Shown piece after piece: positions 15,995 to 24,525 of a DNA stretch of 24,735 bases. The stretch's first letter is position 1. The number at the start of each line of letters is the position of its first letter. Source of the DNA: a virus. Below the pieces are notes generated by a model. It made no database searches. It worked only from the letters and a program-made list of their open reading frames with translations, and was not told the origin of the DNA. The stretch covers positions 1 to 24,735 of the IMG/VR virus record IMGVR_UViG_3300042197_001596; one strand, written 5' to 3'. Both the position numbers and the translations under genes were made by a program.

Positions 15995-17104
15995 ATGAAA
16001 AAGTTCGATGAACCTCCACAGCGAGAGGAACCAGTTCAAGTAATTTATTTGAGCGAAATATCCAATCGAATAGAAAAATGGAAATCTCTTTTACCTAGAG
16101 TTAAACCATTTTATGCCATAAAATCGAATCCAGACAACAAAATTCTCGAAGCCACATTACAACATAATATAGGTTATGATTGTGCGAGTAAAAAGGAAAT
16201 AAAAACCATGCTAGACATGGGAATAACGGCAGATAGAATAATTTATGCCAATCCTTTTAAGCAACCTGATTTTATTGAATACTCAATAGAAAATGGCGTC
16301 TATAGAATGACTCTAGATTCCGTATATGAATTAGAAAAAATAGCTAAAATCGATAAAGAAAAAAAGTCTAAGCTTGTTCTAAGATTAAAAGTGGATTCTG
16401 GCGAGTCATCAATAATTTCATTTTCAGAAAAATTTGGAGCAACTCGAGAGGTTGCTCTTGGTGTATTGATACGTGCAAAAGAGTTAGGATTGGACTTTAT
16501 AGGTGTTAGCTTTCATGTTGGGTCTATGTGTCATAATCCTAATATATTCGAAACTTCAATTCGATTTTGTAGAGAGATATTTGATATGGCCAAGACTTTT
16601 GGATTCGATATGAATTTTTTAGATTTGGGAGGAGGATTTACCGGGAAAACATTCGAAGAGTGTGCTAAAGTTATTAATCAATCTATCGAAAAATACTCTT
16701 TCGAAGATACAGAAGTTATAGCTGAACCTGGCAGATTTCTTTGTGAATCCTCTATAGATATTTATTGTAGAATTATAGGTAAGTCTCTTAAGAATAACAA
16801 ATTTCATTATATTCTAAATGACGGAGTATACAATTCATTCGTCTCCGTGATTTATGATGCTAGAAAACCTCTACCTGAAATCATTAAACCTTTCGAAGAA
16901 GAGACTTATCCTTCAGTTCTTTGGGGAAATACTTGTGATAGCTTAGACTGTTTGGGAAAAAATTTCCACCTTCAGGAGTTGGAAATAGGAGATTGGTTGG
17001 TGTTTAGAGAATTTGGAGCTTACGGTCAACCTTGTGAAGGATTTAATGGATTCGAATTAACCGAAAAAATTTACTTGGATCATGAATATAAAAGACATTC
17101 ATAA
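15995..17104 (+). CDS. Ornithine decarboxylase, eukaryotic-type fold-III PLP enzyme (369 aa)
   Basis: The enzyme would convert ornithine to putrescine and CO2. The alanine-racemase-type barrel carries the PLP lysine Lys43 (YAIKSN), His174 (FHVGS), the glycine loop 212-214 (LGGGF) and phosphate/pyridine contacts in EPGR (244-247). The C-terminal barrel has Cys314-Asp315 (GNTCDSLD), the catalytic pair contributed across the dimer, and Tyr343 (GAYGQ). Asp288 in VIYDAR corresponds to Asp332 of trypanosome ODC. The related chlorovirus arginine decarboxylase has Glu there, so ornithine is the likelier substrate. Length matches compact viral and bacterial members (about 370). An ATG at 15991 is out of frame and closes after six codons. 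The gene stands on the opposite strand from the rest of the window and shares the local TCGA-rich codon habit, so it seems long resident. Confidence 0.9.
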   Translation: MKKFDEPPQREEPVQVIYLSEISNRIEKWKSLLPRVKPFYAIKSNPDNKILEATLQHNIGYDCASKKEIKTMLDMGITADRIIYANPFKQPDFIEYSIENGVYRMTLDSVYELEKIAKIDKEKKSKLVLRLKVDSGESSIISFSEKFGATREVALGVLIRAKELGLDFIGVSFHVGSMCHNPNIFETSIRFCREIFDMAKTFGFDMNFLDLGGGFTGKTFEECAKVINQSIEKYSFEDTEVIAEPGRFLCESSIDIYCRIIGKSLKNNKFHYILNDGVYNSFVSVIYDARKPLPEIIKPFEEETYPSVLWGNTCDSLDCLGKNFHLQELEIGDWLVFREFGAYGQPCEGFNGFELTEKIYLDHEYKRHS

Positions 17105-17411: not shown

Positions 17412-18902
17412 TTAATCTTTTATGAATTTGATTCCTGCATGAGGATCTCCTTTAGCGTCTCCTGCGGCATATTCACCGTCAAATGTAGTTGTTATAAAAG
17501 TTTTATTCGGAGAAACTGCACAACCAATTCTTTCCATGAATTTTCTATTTACCAAGAACTTTGTGGATTTTTCTTTTCTGTCTACTAAAGAAACATGAAC
17601 ATCTTTATAATTTTTTCCGGCAAATTGCATATCCAATTCGATGATAGGTCTTTCATGAGTTTCGGATCCTACTTCAGCATTAGCAAAGCCAATAACCTTT
17701 GAAGTAAAAGTTTTCCCTCCTAATTCCCATTTAACAACTTTTTTATCGTCACTTAATTCGGCTTTATCATAAGTCATTGAACATGAAAGAGATCCATTAC
17801 CGGTGTCGAATTTAGCAACTAAATCTCCAATACCTTCAACGTAAACTACTTCACGGAAACCTACAACTTTTTTAGAACGAATCCAGTTAGTTTTATCCGT
17901 TACAAAATCTACAATATCAGCAACTACATCAATTCCAGTAGCCTTCTTTAATCCTTGAGTTCCAGGAGAAGAATTGACTTCGAGAACATAATTTTTACCT
18001 GTCTTTTTATCTACAATTAGATCGACACCGCACCAATTACATCCTATGGCTTTTGCAGCGGCAATTGCAATTTCTCCTTGTTCTTTAGTTACTTTTGTCT
18101 TTTCTACGGTTCCTCCTAAGGAGTAATTTGTACGAAAATCCTTCTTGACTCTATTTCTTCTCATATATCCAAGAAGAACAGCATCGGTATCTTCTGGAAC
18201 AGGGGAATTAAATTTCTTAGTCAATACGTGAATTCTTAAATCATATTCAGAATTGATTTTTTCTTGAATAAGAATCTCAATTGATTTATCCAGCTTCCAT
18301 ATAGTTTGAAGTACAGATTTAAGAGATCCATAAGAATCAACTATAGAAACTCCAATACCATGAGAACCGGAAAGTAACTTAATAACGACCGGGAATTTAC
18401 CACCAACCTCTTTTACACCTTGATCGATTTTTTCCTCGTTTTCTATTATTGCCATCTTAGGAACAGGAATTCCTGAATCCATAAGCAATTTAGAAGTAAC
18501 ATATTTGTTTTCACAAGCCATTATTGAATCAAGAGTATTAACAACAAAGAATCCATTGTCTTCTAAAGTTGATACAATATCCCTTGTATGAGTCGAAGAA
18601 ACAACTCCCCTACGAGTAAGAATTGCAGTATCGTCTACTGATATTCCCATTGGCTTTTTATTCTTGGTATCGAAGATTAAAAAGTCGTATTTCATTTTTT
18701 TGTCAGGAATAATAGAAGCGGTAGATACATCTATTATTCGACATTCAATTCCTCTTTTTTTACATTCCGCTTCAACGGCAGGAACTGTATATGATTCTTC
18801 ACTTAGATTTGAAAGAAGAACCAATTTAGTTTTGGGTTTTTTAGAACTTTTTGCTTCATTCAAAGCATTAAATTCATTAAAGTAGAGAATTTCTCTTTTC
18901 AT
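17412..18902 (-). CDS. RimK-type ATP-grasp ligase fused to RimB-like aspartyl-protease domain (496 aa)
   Basis: Residues about 25-320 are an ATP-grasp ligase of the RimK group, which joins amino acids such as glutamate to protein or peptide ends: ENKYVTSKLL (121-130), FPVVIKLLSGSHGIGV (170-185), LIQEKI (211-216), DLRIHV (221-226), NYSLGG (249-254) and the metal-binding EVNSSPGTQG (298-307). Residues about 325-490 form a retropepsin-like domain of the RimB/COG4067 kind, with FDTGNGSLSC (335-344; catalytic Asp336) and FLVNRKFM. Thus a writer and a possible trimming domain are fused. The first 20 residues, MKREILYFNEFNALNEAK, resemble T4 capsid-targeting leaders, with a possible prohead-protease cut after Glu16. 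The gene overlaps the upstream zinc-ribbon gene by 26 bases and ends at the shared terminator. Confidence 0.85.
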   Translation of the reverse strand: MKREILYFNEFNALNEAKSSKKPKTKLVLLSNLSEESYTVPAVEAECKKRGIECRIIDVSTASIIPDKKMKYDFLIFDTKNKKPMGISVDDTAILTRRGVVSSTHTRDIVSTLEDNGFFVVNTLDSIMACENKYVTSKLLMDSGIPVPKMAIIENEEKIDQGVKEVGGKFPVVIKLLSGSHGIGVSIVDSYGSLKSVLQTIWKLDKSIEILIQEKINSEYDLRIHVLTKKFNSPVPEDTDAVLLGYMRRNRVKKDFRTNYSLGGTVEKTKVTKEQGEIAIAAAKAIGCNWCGVDLIVDKKTGKNYVLEVNSSPGTQGLKKATGIDVVADIVDFVTDKTNWIRSKKVVGFREVVYVEGIGDLVAKFDTGNGSLSCSMTYDKAELSDDKKVVKWELGGKTFTSKVIGFANAEVGSETHERPIIELDMQFAGKNYKDVHVSLVDRKEKSTKFLVNRKFMERIGCAVSPNKTFITTTFDGEYAAGDAKGDPHAGIKFIKD

Positions 18903-19380
18903 TTTTTTTAATGTATTTTATGAATTTCTGTTGGGTTTCTCGTAATAATTTCTTGTAGTGATCTCCAAATTTAACCATCGAGTCGATAACTAATTGACTT
19001 ACTTTTTTGTTGTCTTTTATGTAATATGTATAACACTTCTTACAGCAAAAATTCTCAGAATTAAACTTATCTACTCGAGACTTTATGGGTGCTTTACAAA
19101 AGGCACAGGTCCAATCAAGTATTTTATAGGAGTCCTTCACGTTTGAATACGTGGATATCTCTCGGGTCTCTAGATTAACAAACGGTCTTTGATTATAGGA
19201 TATATTAATTCTTGCTTCTTCCATCTGAAATAGACAATTTAAGAATTGATCGTCATCTGCATTCTTCTTAATTACCTCATTTTTCAAAAGGATTCTTTGA
19301 TATCGAGGAGGAAGTGAAGAAAGTAGAATGCCAAAACGAGTCTTGGCTCGACCTTTATTTTGTCTCTTTATATTAATCAT
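18877..19380 (-). CDS. Zinc-ribbon protein of unknown function (167 aa)
   Basis: A basic N-terminus (MINIKRQNKGRAKTRFG, then LPPRYQRILLKNEV) is followed by a charged helix. A four-cysteine site comes next: Cys92-x2-Cys95 (WTCAFCKAP) and Cys113-x2-Cys116 (FCCKKCY), spaced 17 residues apart, typical of zinc ribbons or treble clefs. The C-terminal helix is strongly basic (QQKFIKYIKKNEKR). Such proteins usually bind nucleic acid or protein. The start overlaps the stop of the Lys/Glu-rich gene by eight bases, and its last 26 bases encode the leader of the ATP-grasp protein in another frame, so the three are probably made together. A late-gene regulator or assembly factor are both possible. Confidence 0.65.
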   Translation of the reverse strand: MINIKRQNKGRAKTRFGILLSSLPPRYQRILLKNEVIKKNADDDQFLNCLFQMEEARINISYNQRPFVNLETREISTYSNVKDSYKILDWTCAFCKAPIKSRVDKFNSENFCCKKCYTYYIKDNKKVSQLVIDSMVKFGDHYKKLLRETQQKFIKYIKKNEKRNSLL

Positions 19381-22120
19381 ATAGATGATCGTAAAAATCC
19401 GTGTCTATTTTTCTCTCTAGCATTATCATAGCAGCTTCAATAGCCCATAACTCTTGTTCGAAAAGTTCAGGGTCTATACCAAATTCTAAAGACTCTTTCA
19501 ATTTCTTAATAGCAGCTCCTAGAGCTTCTACGTTTTTATTAATTGCAAGTTTCTTATTAGGATCATCTGTCTTATTAAGAGCTTCTTTAGCACCTTTTAA
19601 TTTCTTTTCGAGTTGTTCAATTTTAAATTTATTGGCTTCTTTAGCAGCCTCTTCGGGCGATTTCTTTTCTGTAGGTTCGGAAACTCCCGAAGTTTCCGGT
19701 TTTTTAGCAGCCCCTTCCTTAGAGTCTTTATTTCCTTTCTTGTCTGCTTCTTTAGCCTCTGGTGTTTTTTCGGGATCAGTTCCTTCTTTCTTGGCCGTTT
19801 CTATAGTTTCTTCTGCTTTTTTAGCTTCTGGAGTATCCTTTTGTCCATCTGCAGCTTTATCAAGATTTGCTTCTGCTTCATCCGCATCTTCGGCAGCTTT
19901 ATTAGCTTTTTCTTCGAATTCTTCTGCCTGATCTCCTCCACTAATAGAAGCGATTGCATTGTTATATTCTTCTCGATTTCTTAGACGTAAAGCTGAAAGC
20001 TTGGATCTTAGCATTAAATTCCAACCAGCTTTCTTGTTAGATTCGTCCATAAGAGCTTTAATCTCTTCGTTTTTCCCGTCCTTAGTATCTTCTAGTTGTT
20101 TTTCTAGAGACTCTATTTTAGACAATAAAGCTTCTAATTCCTCTTCAATACTATCTTCATCTTTTTCTTCTTCTTCGGCTTTATCTAGAGCTTCTTCTTT
20201 AGCAGTTTTCTTTTCAGTATCATATCCAGGAGGGAATGCATCTTTACCTTTGGATTTGATATCTGCAATTTCTGCTTGTTTATCAGCAATTTCTCCTTGA
20301 ATTATAGCTTTTTTCTTCGGATCTTTTTCTGCAGCTAATTTTTCCTTAAGATCAATTAATTCTCCTTTAGCTTTTTCTAATTCTGCTTGATTTTTTTGCT
20401 GGTCTGGAGTTCCTTTACCGGATTCTATGTCTTCTTTTGAAGTTTTCTTTCCTTGAAGTTCAGCTAGCTCCTTTTGTTTTGCACTTAATTCGGTTGTTGC
20501 ATTCTTAATTTTTAATTCTTGCTCTTGTATCTCCGAAGGTTTTGCAGGAGGATCTTTCTCTTTTAATTTGGTTAAAGCTAAATTCTCATTATCGACGGTA
20601 GATTGTAAAGTTGCAACTTCTTTCTCTAAAGCCTTTACTTTTTCTTCGTTTGCTGCATCGTCTTCTGGAGTATCTTCTTTTTTCTTTTTAAGAGGCACCT
20701 CGTTACCGTCTTTATCTTTTATTGTTTTGGTTTCGTATTGATCCTTTTCTTCTTCGGAAGGAGTTCCTTCTTCCCAGCCCTCTTCCTTAGCCTTAGTAAG
20801 CTCGTCCTCTTTCTCTAATTCTTCAGTGTCAACTCCTTTTTCTTTAGCTTTTTCTAAAGCATCTTCTGCCTTTTGTATGTCCGCTTCCGTGTCTTTAGGA
20901 TCATATTCCTCCCCTTTAAGTTTTGCAAGTTCCTCTTTAGCTTTCTCTTTCTCCTTAGTTTTCTTCTTCATCTTCACGGCCAATCCTGCAACTTTAATCA
21001 TGGATTTTAGATCAGGATCTTCTTCCATCAATTTATCCATTTCTCCTTCGATGGTATCCATTTCCGCTTGTATATCATCGACCTTCTTTTGAGCAGCATC
21101 TATAGCGGCTTGATCTTTCTCTTCTCCTGTTTCTTCTTCAGTTTCTTCGGTATCGGTACTCTCTTCATCGCCTTTCATTAAAGCGTCTATTTTCTCTTGA
21201 GTTTTAGCAGCGGCATCCGTCCATTTTTGTTTACCTTCACCATCAGCCATACCTTCTTGAGCTTTCTGTCTCTCAAGTTGAGCTTGTAAGAGTCTAATCT
21301 TAGTCTCTTTTATTTTCTCTTTTAGTTTCTCTTTATCCTCTTCTCCTCCTTCTGCTTCTCCTAAAGATTCTAATTCTTTTTTAAGTTTAGAAAGAATTTC
21401 ATATTCTTCTGCTTCTTTTTGTTTAAGTTGAGCAAGTTTTGCAACCTCTCCGGCATTATCGTCTCCTTCTATCTTTTTCTTTTGTGCAGACAATTCGCTT
21501 TTTTCAGCAGAAGCTTGTAGAGTTTGTAATTTAATATCTCTTGCCTTTTCCGGATCTTGATCCGAATCGACGTTTTCTTTTTGTTTTTTTAATCCTGAAA
21601 TTTCTTCTTTCTTAGCATCTAACTGTTTCTGGATTTTTTCAATTTTTTTAGCGTCTTTGTCTCCAGTTCCTTCTTCTTTTCCTTTTTCTTCTCCTTTTGA
21701 TTCTGGAGATTTCTCTTCTCCTTTCTTTTCAGTGTCTTTAGATTTTTCTTTATCTTTAGAAGGTTCTTCTTTCTTGGGTTTCTCTTTATCTTTAGAGACT
21801 TCTTTTTTAGGTTTTTCTGCTTTAGGTTTCTTTTCTACTTTAGCTTTCTTTTCTTTTTTAGGTCCTGCTTTTCTGGCTCTCATTTTGGCAGCCTTTCTTT
21901 GTGCCGGAGTTTGAGCAGCTTCAACTAAAACAAAATACAAATCATTTTCCCATAGTTCGTATTTGAAGGGTTCGAGTGCTTCTAGAAGTTCTTCTACTGT
22001 GGTGTCTTCTGTAATTTCTATATCGAATTCATCAGAAACAGATTCTATGAATTCCATCATTAATTGGAAGTTCTGATAGTTTTCGTATTCTTCCAATAAT
22101 AGATTATCGATATTGTTCAT
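19373..22120 (-). CDS. Lys/Glu-rich coiled-coil protein, candidate prohead core protein (915 aa)
   Basis: An acidic N-terminal domain (1-67, with ELLEALEPFKYELWEND) ends in LVEAAQTP, where Leu65-Val66-Glu67 before Ala68 fits the T4 prohead protease rule (Leu/Ile-x-Glu). A basic stretch follows (RARKAGPKKEKKAK), then about 750 residues of Lys/Glu/Asp/Ala-rich repeats alternating disordered (KPKKEEPSKDKEKSK) and coiled-coil parts. A more ordered helical end follows (about 835-915, ELFEQELWAIEAAMIMLERK). Highly charged, helical, gene-23-adjacent proteins are typical of T4-type scaffold/core (gp22 and internal proteins), though this is about three times longer than gp22. Low-complexity composition makes homology hard to judge. 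The plus-strand frames over it are shadows of the repeats. It precedes the zinc-ribbon gene with an overlap. Confidence 0.6.
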   Translation of the reverse strand: MNNIDNLLLEEYENYQNFQLMMEFIESVSDEFDIEITEDTTVEELLEALEPFKYELWENDLYFVLVEAAQTPAQRKAAKMRARKAGPKKEKKAKVEKKPKAEKPKKEVSKDKEKPKKEEPSKDKEKSKDTEKKGEEKSPESKGEEKGKEEGTGDKDAKKIEKIQKQLDAKKEEISGLKKQKENVDSDQDPEKARDIKLQTLQASAEKSELSAQKKKIEGDDNAGEVAKLAQLKQKEAEEYEILSKLKKELESLGEAEGGEEDKEKLKEKIKETKIRLLQAQLERQKAQEGMADGEGKQKWTDAAAKTQEKIDALMKGDEESTDTEETEEETGEEKDQAAIDAAQKKVDDIQAEMDTIEGEMDKLMEEDPDLKSMIKVAGLAVKMKKKTKEKEKAKEELAKLKGEEYDPKDTEADIQKAEDALEKAKEKGVDTEELEKEDELTKAKEEGWEEGTPSEEEKDQYETKTIKDKDGNEVPLKKKKEDTPEDDAANEEKVKALEKEVATLQSTVDNENLALTKLKEKDPPAKPSEIQEQELKIKNATTELSAKQKELAELQGKKTSKEDIESGKGTPDQQKNQAELEKAKGELIDLKEKLAAEKDPKKKAIIQGEIADKQAEIADIKSKGKDAFPPGYDTEKKTAKEEALDKAEEEEKDEDSIEEELEALLSKIESLEKQLEDTKDGKNEEIKALMDESNKKAGWNLMLRSKLSALRLRNREEYNNAIASISGGDQAEEFEEKANKAAEDADEAEANLDKAADGQKDTPEAKKAEETIETAKKEGTDPEKTPEAKEADKKGNKDSKEGAAKKPETSGVSEPTEKKSPEEAAKEANKFKIEQLEKKLKGAKEALNKTDDPNKKLAINKNVEALGAAIKKLKESLEFGIDPELFEQELWAIEAAMIMLERKIDTDFYDHLYD

Positions 22121-22902: not shown

Positions 22903-24525
22903 TTATACTAAAGAACCTAATGAAGCGCCTAAGTTAACACCCGATGTCATATACATGGTTTCTGGGTGGAAACCAGCTTCAACAAGAGCGTAACGAGATT
23001 TTACAGCAACTTTAGGAGCCATAGTTCCTTCAGCGATAGTCTGTACTGATTCAGCCATTAAGTAAGGCATGAATACAAGACCTGGAGAGTTACCGTCACC
23101 TTTACGTCCAACGCAGAAACGAGTATCGTTCCAAGCACGGTTTGGATCGTTATAGATCGCAAGACCAGCAAGAGTTCCGATTGGGTAAAGAGAACCACTC
23201 ATTTGGTTGATTGTGTTAGCCATTGGTGCAGGGATGAATCCAGCAACATCTTGAAGGGCAGAACATACTTGACCGTTAGTTACTACGAAAGTAGCAGGAC
23301 CACGACGACCTCTGATTGCGATTAAGTTCGCGATAGCAAGGATCTTAGACATGATCTTTCTTTGACGGGTATGTAAGTTTTCAGAAGCAGAGTTAATAAC
23401 CTCAGTAGCAGCTACAACTTCATTTCTCAATGCTGTTGATTGAATATAAGCACCGAAGTTAGTAGCAGATGAACAAGAAGCACCTACAGTTATAGCAGTA
23501 GATCCTAAGTTCAAGAAGAAGTTTTGACCTTGAGTACGTAATACAAACTCATGGTTTCTTTCTCCTAAGAAGAACAATCTGTCAAGGATGTTTTTGTTGA
23601 TAGATTGAGTCAATTCGTTGATAAGTACTGATTCAACTTGTGAAACAGCATCCACTCCAAATTGTTTCAAATCTTGAACTTGTTCACGAGTTACTGCAGC
23701 AGCAACTTGGAAAGTCTTAGCTTCAACTGATTTGTTGAATAGACTTAAGTTCATGATGTTATCCATCGTACCTTCACCGTCATTTCTTGAATAAGGATCG
23801 TTAATATCGAATCCTGTGTAGTCTTCCTCAAGAAGAGCTTTACCAGAGAATCCTGTAATGTGATCTTCTAGAGCTTTAACTAATTCGATAGTTAAACCAT
23901 CAGTAGCACCAGTTACACCACTGATACCTGTTACACCGATTGCAGTAGTTGCAACCGTAAGTAGAGTACCAGAAGATAAAGTTCCTCTTACGTGGAAAAT
24001 TGGATAACCGTCGATACGAGAAGCTCCTACATAAGCTAAAGTAATACCGTTAATAGTATCTGAAGTTCCTCCGGCAACAAATGCAGGAATTGAGGTAGAT
24101 CCATAATTAACTTTGATTAAAGTTGGGATGTTATCTCCAGTTCCAGAAGTTTTACCACCAGCATAAACAAAGTCTAAGTAAGTAAGAACACCCATTGGAC
24201 CAGGCATAGGAACAACTGGTACTAGGTCTAGACCAACTGTTTGTGCAGCAACTTGCATAGCAAGTGGTAACAATGTGTGAGCTTTATCACCAGAACCTGT
24301 AGTCTGTGTGTAAAAATTGTCTTGTGTGCCTGGGTCACCAGGGAAACGTGTAGCTCCCATACCGTTAACAGCACCAAGAACTGAATAAGAGTTACTTTCG
24401 TAAAGTTCGTGATAATGACAGTATTTTGACATCCACTCAACTTTAGAACGATCAGTAATTCCTACTTCGGACTCCAAAATTGGAGACCACTTAGAAAAAA
24501 TTTCTTGTTCGTTTAACAAATACAT
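22903..24525 (-). CDS. Major capsid protein, gp23-like (540 aa)
   Basis: This is the HK97-fold shell subunit of the head. The opening EIFSKWSPILESEVG parallels the LLNKWKPLLEGEG start of T4 gp23. The C-terminal part (RFCVGRKG, GLVFMPYL, VAVKSRYALVEAGFHPETMY) follows gp23 (GVFYSPY, GFKTRYGIQVNPF). T4 gp23 loses 65 N-terminal residues at a Leu-x-Glu site. Here Leu41-Tyr42-Glu43 before Ser44 is a plausible equivalent, giving a shorter 43-residue propeptide. A Gly/Thr/Ser-rich stretch at about 135-225 is probably an inserted surface domain. Length is close to T4 gp23 (521). The ATG follows a C/A-rich leader (ACACAACAAAAATG). TCGA is rarer here than in any other gene I counted. Confidence 0.93.
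   Translation of the reverse strand: MYLLNEQEIFSKWSPILESEVGITDRSKVEWMSKYCHYHELYESNSYSVLGAVNGMGATRFPGDPGTQDNFYTQTTGSGDKAHTLLPLAMQVAAQTVGLDLVPVVPMPGPMGVLTYLDFVYAGGKTSGTGDNIPTLIKVNYGSTSIPAFVAGGTSDTINGITLAYVGASRIDGYPIFHVRGTLSSGTLLTVATTAIGVTGISGVTGATDGLTIELVKALEDHITGFSGKALLEEDYTGFDINDPYSRNDGEGTMDNIMNLSLFNKSVEAKTFQVAAAVTREQVQDLKQFGVDAVSQVESVLINELTQSINKNILDRLFFLGERNHEFVLRTQGQNFFLNLGSTAITVGASCSSATNFGAYIQSTALRNEVVAATEVINSASENLHTRQRKIMSKILAIANLIAIRGRRGPATFVVTNGQVCSALQDVAGFIPAPMANTINQMSGSLYPIGTLAGLAIYNDPNRAWNDTRFCVGRKGDGNSPGLVFMPYLMAESVQTIAEGTMAPKVAVKSRYALVEAGFHPETMYMTSGVNLGASLGSLV

What the first reader, a model, noticed from the sequence alone, without database searches (positions are those of the whole stretch)
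17412..18902. A RimK-type ligase/protease fusion that may be packaged inside the capsid
Seen: the first 18 residues, MKREILYFNEFNALNEAK, combine an MK start, an EF pair and Leu-x-Glu followed by Ala. Known: T4 internal proteins carry a leader of the MKTYQEFIAEA type that sends them into the prohead core, and protease gp21 cuts after (Leu/Ile)-x-Glu. The protein is encoded in the head cluster, two genes downstream of another Leu-x-Glu-Ala protein. Inference: the mature enzyme, starting at Ala17, travels in the capsid and may be injected to modify host proteins, for example by adding glutamate to ribosomal protein S6 or another target, with the fused RimB-like domain trimming the product. A capsid-borne ATP-grasp peptide ligase would be a new type of ejected phage effector.
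Basis: partly seen in the sequence, partly recalled or inferred. Interest (0 to 1): 0.72.

Follow-up and report, generated by a model that had tools for sequence, protein, structure and literature searches.

The report
Capsid-targeted RimK–retropepsin phage enzyme
This phage gene encodes a protein-tagging enzyme fused to a tag-removing protease, and it carries the short "address label" that large phages use to load proteins into their heads, so the enzyme is probably delivered into the bacterium with the DNA; its target is unknown.

Summary
The ORF is real but lies on the minus strand (window 17412-18902:-, 496 aa). It is a RimK-family ATP-grasp ligase (residues 25-341) followed by a RimB/RloA-type retropepsin domain (345-471); both active sites look intact. 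Residues 1-24 precede the RimK fold and are predicted disordered. This extension, ...YFNEFNALNE|AK, is conserved in all 34 non-redundant relatives of the wider clade, while the linker after it drifts. The same leader sits on many unrelated proteins in related genomes (36 hits against about 0.2 expected from shuffles), as with T4's MKTYQEFIAEA. T4-type prohead proteases occur in the related contigs. The closest experimental evidence is a 33%-identical orthologue in Yersinia phage YerA41, reported as virion-associated by LC-MS/MS; its different leader (LNKFEA) is shared with other YerA41 virion proteins. Capsid packaging is therefore well supported. Cleavage at Glu16, injection, and a host target (S6 or other) are not shown. 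One clade of nine relatives lacks the leader. Phage RimK with a C-terminal DUF785 was already reported in 2008, so the new element is the capsid-targeting reading. New variant of a known kind.

The parts
18855..18902 (-). leader, residues 1-16 (MKREILYFNEFNALNE), T4-CTS-like; predicted cleavage after Glu16
   Evidence: Conserved F11/N15/E16 in 38 aligned relatives; shared with unrelated proteins; pLDDT <50 for residues 1-21; lies before RimK residue 1
18831..18854 (-). variable linker, residues 17-24
   Evidence: About 2-3 bits of entropy per column and gaps at several positions from 19 on in 38 aligned relatives
17880..18830 (-). RimK-type ATP-grasp ligase domain, residues 25-341
   Evidence: PF08443, TIGR00768, Z 30.9 to Pseudomonas RimK 7qyr/7qys; active-site residues invariant
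17490..17870 (-). RimB/RloA-type retropepsin domain, residues 345-471, DTGN at 366-369 (17796-17807)
   Evidence: Z 15.5 to 2pma, 15.4 to 9g59; profile hits 9g59 E=1.3e-10; DTGN invariant
17415..17489 (-). C-terminal tail, residues 472-496 (AKG..HAGI.F)
   Evidence: Largely conserved in the jumbo-phage members, absent from Mosig and YerA41
18877..19380 (-). overlapping upstream gene, 167 aa, Cys-rich; adjacent in the window clade, not a universal partner
   Evidence: 10 of 51 loci
19373..22120 (-). 915-aa Lys/Glu-rich protein, probable core/scaffold protein, LVE|AAQ site near residues 65-69
   Evidence: Sequence; no family match over a cut-off; role inferred from composition and position
22903..24525 (-). 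major capsid protein gp23
   Evidence: PF07068 E=4e-35

Best explanation
The gene makes a two-domain enzyme that is loaded into the phage head. The first ~16 residues act like the T4 capsid-targeting sequence: they bring the protein into the prohead core, and the T4-type prohead protease then removes them after Glu16. The mature enzyme, starting at Ala17, is carried in the virion and most likely enters the cell with the DNA. There the RimK domain adds amino acids, probably glutamates, to the C-terminus of one or more proteins, and the fused RimB-type domain trims the tail or stimulates the ligase. Shown by computation: domain architecture, intact active sites, shared and conserved leader. Reported by others: virion detection of the YerA41 orthologue. 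Inferred: cleavage, injection, amino acid and target. Step estimates: packaging 0.85, cleavage at Glu16 0.75, injection 0.65, polyglutamylation 0.6, S6 as main target 0.3.
For: Leader shared with unrelated proteins: 36 genes against about 0.2 expected; a looser scan found 71 unrelated body clusters among 93 proteins, with some chance matches. Leader conserved while linker drifts: F11 0.57, N15 0.83, E16 0.59 bits against about 2-3 bits in the linker. All 34 rows of the wider clade have LxE. More divergent relatives carry related leaders: Mosig MQVQPFKNYLEEA, L162 MENFKSFITEQ and L152 MGIKQYLTEG, Melnitz MTQKFSQFITEE, which has no RimB domain. T4 ipII/ipIII read MKTYQEFIAEA and ipI MKTFKEF...ITEA. 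Prohead protease family found in 15 of 23 records searched, upstream of the capsid gene in several relatives. YerA41 orthologue annotated 'structural protein'; the paper's g112 'Ribosomal protein modification protein' is marked as LC-MS/MS-detected. Its LNKFEA leader recurs on seven YerA41 proteins, six labelled structural, P=0.004. Fold: leader precedes RimK residue 1; Z 30.9 and 15.5.
Against: Nine non-redundant orthologues in one clade lack an LxE leader although a genome of that clade has leader-bearing genes. No virion data exist for any phage with the window-type leader. YerA41 virion lists include replication enzymes such as a ribonucleotide reductase subunit, so carry-over contamination is possible, and g112 was expressed in the middle phase. 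The match g112 = YerA41_066 was inferred from gene order, not checked in the supplement. In Mosig the gene sits among replication genes. The S6-ligase equivalog model is missed by a wide margin (92.9 against 331 bits), and a bacterial RimBK hybrid showed protease but no detected RpsF ligation (PMC11957791).
Confidence: 0.68

Rival explanations
1. The protein is packaged but works during head assembly: it modifies the core, scaffold or capsid proteins inside the prohead, and any copy in the virion is left over.
For: In the window the gene sits just downstream of the capsid and probable core genes; the leader would place it in the prohead core; RimB-type enzymes cut glutamate runs (PMC11957791) and the 915-aa protein is very Glu/Lys-rich.
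Against: The location is not kept: in G006 the gene is about 30 kb from the capsid gene and in Mosig it is among replication genes. T4 leader proteins with known functions act in the new host (PMC3012670; PMC12373910).
Confidence: 0.17
2. It is an ordinary intracellular enzyme made during infection that modifies S6 or another protein to favour phage translation; virion presence is incidental. This was the 2008 proposal for phage RimK.
For: Middle-phase expression of the YerA41 gene; replication-gene neighbourhood in Mosig and Melnitz; cyanophage S-CAM8 RimK has no leader; proposal in PMC2530865.
Against: Does not explain why this protein carries a leader shared by many unrelated proteins, conserved over a drifting linker, or the separate leader shared with YerA41 virion proteins.
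Confidence: 0.12
3. The N-terminal extension is a signal for something other than the capsid, for example a subcellular compartment or a partner protein.
For: No direct localisation data for any window-type phage.
Against: Close resemblance to T4 leaders verified from the T4 genome, including the Glu cleavage position; prohead protease present in relatives; YerA41 leader set mostly labelled structural.
Confidence: 0.03

Closest known systems
T4 internal proteins IPI, IPII, IPIII and their capsid-targeting sequence
   Same: Short N-terminal leader with F..F and a Glu before the cut, shared by proteins with otherwise unrelated bodies; T4-type prohead protease in the related genomes.
   Different: T4 IPs are small restriction inhibitors; this cargo is a two-domain enzyme, and the leader set per genome is larger. 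Cleavage and injection are not shown here.
Bacterial RimK and RimB (Pseudomonas RimABK)
   Same: RimK fold and ATP-grasp residues; retropepsin fold and DTG motif; both activities concern C-terminal glutamate tails. A Vibrio plasmid has rimK followed by rimB as separate genes in the same order.
   Different: Fused in one chain, with a capsid leader, in phages; score far below the S6-ligase model.
RimBK hybrid of Desulfotalea psychrophila
   Same: RimB and RimK domains in one polypeptide.
   Different: Opposite order (RimB first), cellular; protease activity shown but RpsF ligation not observed (PMC11957791).
Phage RimK with C-terminal DUF785 in ocean metagenomes (PMC2530865)
   Same: Same domain order in phage contigs, described in 2008.
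   Different: No leader or virion location was proposed in the passages read; they suggested translation control in the cell.
YerA41 g112 / YerA41_066
   Same: Orthologue at about 33% identity, same domains, reported as virion-associated.
   Different: Leader of a different type (LNKFEA); annotated only as structural protein or ribosomal protein modification protein.

Membership tests
RimK family alpha-L-glutamate ligase (TIGR00768, PF08443) | score over curated cut-off | tested here: met
   157.2 against 143.4 bits; 126 against 21 bits
RimK family alpha-L-glutamate ligase (TIGR00768, PF08443) | ATP-grasp and poly-Glu-binding residues kept | tested here: met
   R97, R223, N310 invariant and match R64, R189, N262 of P. 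aeruginosa RimK by the alignment; K133, K175, D294, E308 invariant and E214 nearly so; residue roles from PMC10092738 and general ATP-grasp knowledge. Other poly-Glu contacts (S7, R8, S14, S68) were not all matched.
S6--L-glutamate ligase equivalog (NF007764) | score over curated cut-off | tested here: not met
   92.9 against 331 bits
RimB/DUF785 retropepsin family (PF05618) | Pfam gathering score | tested here: not met
   18.7 against 27 bits for the window protein; homologue L153 reaches 42.6
RimB/DUF785 retropepsin family (PF05618) | fold and catalytic DTG | tested here: met
   Z 15.5/15.4/14.8 to 2pma/9g59/9g58; DTGN invariant
RimBK hybrid | RimB domain N-terminal to RimK | tested here: not met
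   Order here is RimK then RimB-like
T4-type internal (capsid-targeted) protein | short leader ending in (L/I)xE, shared by unrelated proteins of the same genome | tested here: met
   tested on related contigs, since the window itself holds only one such gene
T4-type internal (capsid-targeted) protein | T4-type prohead protease in the genome | tested here: inconclusive
   Present in relatives, e.g. G010 upstream of the capsid gene; the window ends before that position
T4-type internal (capsid-targeted) protein | protein found in virions | not testable with these tools
   Only a published report for the YerA41 orthologue
T4-type internal (capsid-targeted) protein | N-terminal processing and injection | not testable with these tools
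   No experimental data

The most novel reading that the evidence does not exclude
A widespread family of large phages injects, with its DNA, a self-contained polyglutamylation machine (ligase plus trimming protease) that tags host proteins at their C-termini before any phage gene is expressed, to reset translation or disarm a defence; unrelated phage groups have separately fitted the same enzyme with their own packaging leader.
Probability: 0.42. Interest if true: 0.8.

Novelty: new variant of a known kind. Interest (0 to 1): 0.6.

Why it matters
Functions are known for very few injected phage proteins, and the T4 ones I found described are mostly restriction inhibitors. This would be an injected enzyme that adds and removes peptide tags, kept in phages whose gene-start signals suggest very different hosts. 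The leader set also gives a testable way to list the protein cargo of large uncultured phages from sequence alone.

Tried and rejected
Bacterial origin by pattern scan of genome contigs: one weak hit on the RimK part only, uninformative. Two Vibrio plasmid hits looked like RimK-RimB fusions; in L215 the ORF list shows separate adjacent genes, and L216 also has RimK as a 301-aa ORF. A conserved partner gene was sought in 51 loci; no neighbour family exceeds 19 of them. PADLOC: no match. A search for the FxFKG leader on other genes of G013 found none near an N-terminus besides RimK. PF05618 in 59 genomes of one phylum gave three stand-alone hits in ORFs of 155-225 aa. A short DNA pattern for the leader found nothing in the window, as it was too rigid. 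S6 C-terminal sequences of likely hosts could not be checked because the hosts are unknown.

Full report
OBSERVATION. The ORF at 17412-18902 is on the minus strand; the plus strand there is not open. The protein has 496 residues. Its start is fixed by an in-frame stop six codons upstream with no other start codon between (read). It overlaps the upstream 167-aa gene and lies in a head cluster with the gp23-type capsid protein and a terminase. The 915-aa Lys/Glu-rich protein two genes upstream has an LVE|AAQ site.

DOMAINS. RimK is clear by Pfam and NCBIfam. An AlphaFold2 model built from 49 window and locus sequences has mean pLDDT 86.4, with residues 1-21 below 50. Model residue 25 aligns with residue 1 of Pseudomonas RimK, Z 30.9, so residues 1-24 are an extension in front of a complete RimK. 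The C-terminal domain, folded alone (mean pLDDT 93.6), matches RimB/RloA-type retropepsins 2pma, 9g59 and 9g58 at Z 14.8-15.5, with retroviral proteases next at about 8. DTGN is invariant in all aligned relatives, including YerA41 and Mosig. The residues of P. aeruginosa RimK that contact poly-glutamate and could be matched (R64, R189, N262; PMC10092738) correspond to invariant R97, R223 and N310 by the alignment. Both sites therefore look functional. The protein is far below NCBI's S6-ligase model, so the substrate must not be assumed.

THE LEADER. Across 38 aligned relatives, F11, N15 and E16 have 0.57, 0.83 and 0.59 bits of entropy, against about 2-3 bits in the linker that follows. A tree built without the leader shows the LxE leader in all 34 rows of the wider clade. 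The leader is not a property of RimK: in seven related contigs (window included), 36 genes carry the tight motif within 30 residues of the start, against about 0.2 expected after shuffling each N-terminus. Some contigs are related to each other, so these are not 36 independent events. A looser scan of six contigs grouped 93 proteins into 71 unrelated bodies; that looser pattern includes chance matches. T4 ipII and ipIII begin MKTYQEFIAEA and ipI MKTFKEF...ITEA, and the literature describes T4 internal proteins as sharing only this leader (PMC3012670; PMC12373910). Prohead-protease family members were found in 9 of 12 records in one search and 6 of 11 in another; missing ones may reflect fragmentary contigs.

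VIRION EVIDENCE. The YerA41 orthologue (33% identity) is annotated 'structural protein'. In PMC7354516 Table 3, g112 'Ribosomal protein modification protein' carries the asterisk for LC-MS/MS detection in particles and lies just after the ribonucleotide reductase genes g109-g110, as YerA41_066 does; I equate the two on that basis. Its N-terminus, MNTLNQSPARRLLNKFEAADEK, lacks the T4-like leader. However, a KFE[A/S/G] leader recurs near the start of seven YerA41 proteins, six of them labelled structural, P=0.004 against 63 of 201, or 0.012 with RimK left out. I found this motif after looking at the N-termini, and 'structural' is the submitters' label, so I treat it as strong support rather than proof. 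It suggests that RimK is packaged in YerA41 through a different leader.

COUNTER-EVIDENCE. Nine non-redundant orthologues forming one clade start with a different extension (...EKFVFKG...) without LxE. In G013, a genome of this clade, other genes do have leader-like starts, but none shares the FxFKG form. Packaging was either changed or lost there. Cyanophage S-CAM8 RimK has no extension, whereas Melnitz RimK, which lacks the RimB domain, has MTQKFSQFITEE.

SPREAD AND HOSTS. That count includes weaker matches. The window and its closest relatives rarely use Shine-Dalgarno-like sites (6-21%), unlike YerA41 (69%) and G015 (72%). That fits Bacteroidota-type hosts for the window group, an inference from translation signals only. 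No neighbour gene is constant.

PRIOR WORK. Phage RimK with a C-terminal DUF785 was described from ocean metagenomes in 2008 and proposed to modify S6 (PMC2530865). RimB is an aspartic protease that removes glutamates from RpsF and stimulates RimK; a bacterial hybrid has the opposite order, RimB first (PMC11957791). I found no paper in the held library linking phage RimK to a capsid-targeting leader, but that library is partial.

VERDICT. The most useful result is the tie between a leader system, a conserved enzyme and an independent mass-spectrometry report.

Noticed in passing
L075:1395-2549 (G006): A CCA-adding/poly(A) polymerase-type enzyme (PF01743 E=2.4e-34) carries a capsid-type leader MKIKTYTEFKLLTEAQ: another possible packaged enzyme.
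   Followed up: partly
G002 133186-135648; G003 126364-131198; G006 56442-57492: Runs of consecutive or near-consecutive genes with leader-type N-termini and unrelated bodies, most of the larger ones tested without a Pfam match: possible cargo islands.
   Followed up: partly
L153:908-3073 and L154: 722-aa version with an extra N-terminal nucleotidyltransferase-like stretch (FTFGRFQPPTIGHEKL) before RimK and the retropepsin domain; the N-terminal part had no Pfam match.
   Followed up: partly
YerA41 record 139741-143979: Cluster of small genes sharing an N-terminal (L/M)NxKFE-type leader, most labelled structural protein.
   Followed up: yes
window 15995-17104:+: A PLP-dependent decarboxylase of the ornithine/DAP type (PF02784) on the opposite strand between the clamp-loader gene and the RimK gene.
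   Followed up: no
window 18877-19380:-: 167-aa Cys-rich protein overlapping the RimK start, adjacent in 10 of 51 loci, only weak unknown-function PHROG matches.
   Followed up: no
G018, G013, G017, G016, G012, G007 and other contigs: The prohead-protease domain lies in an open frame of about 570-700 aa, much longer than in Mosig (221 aa).
   Followed up: no
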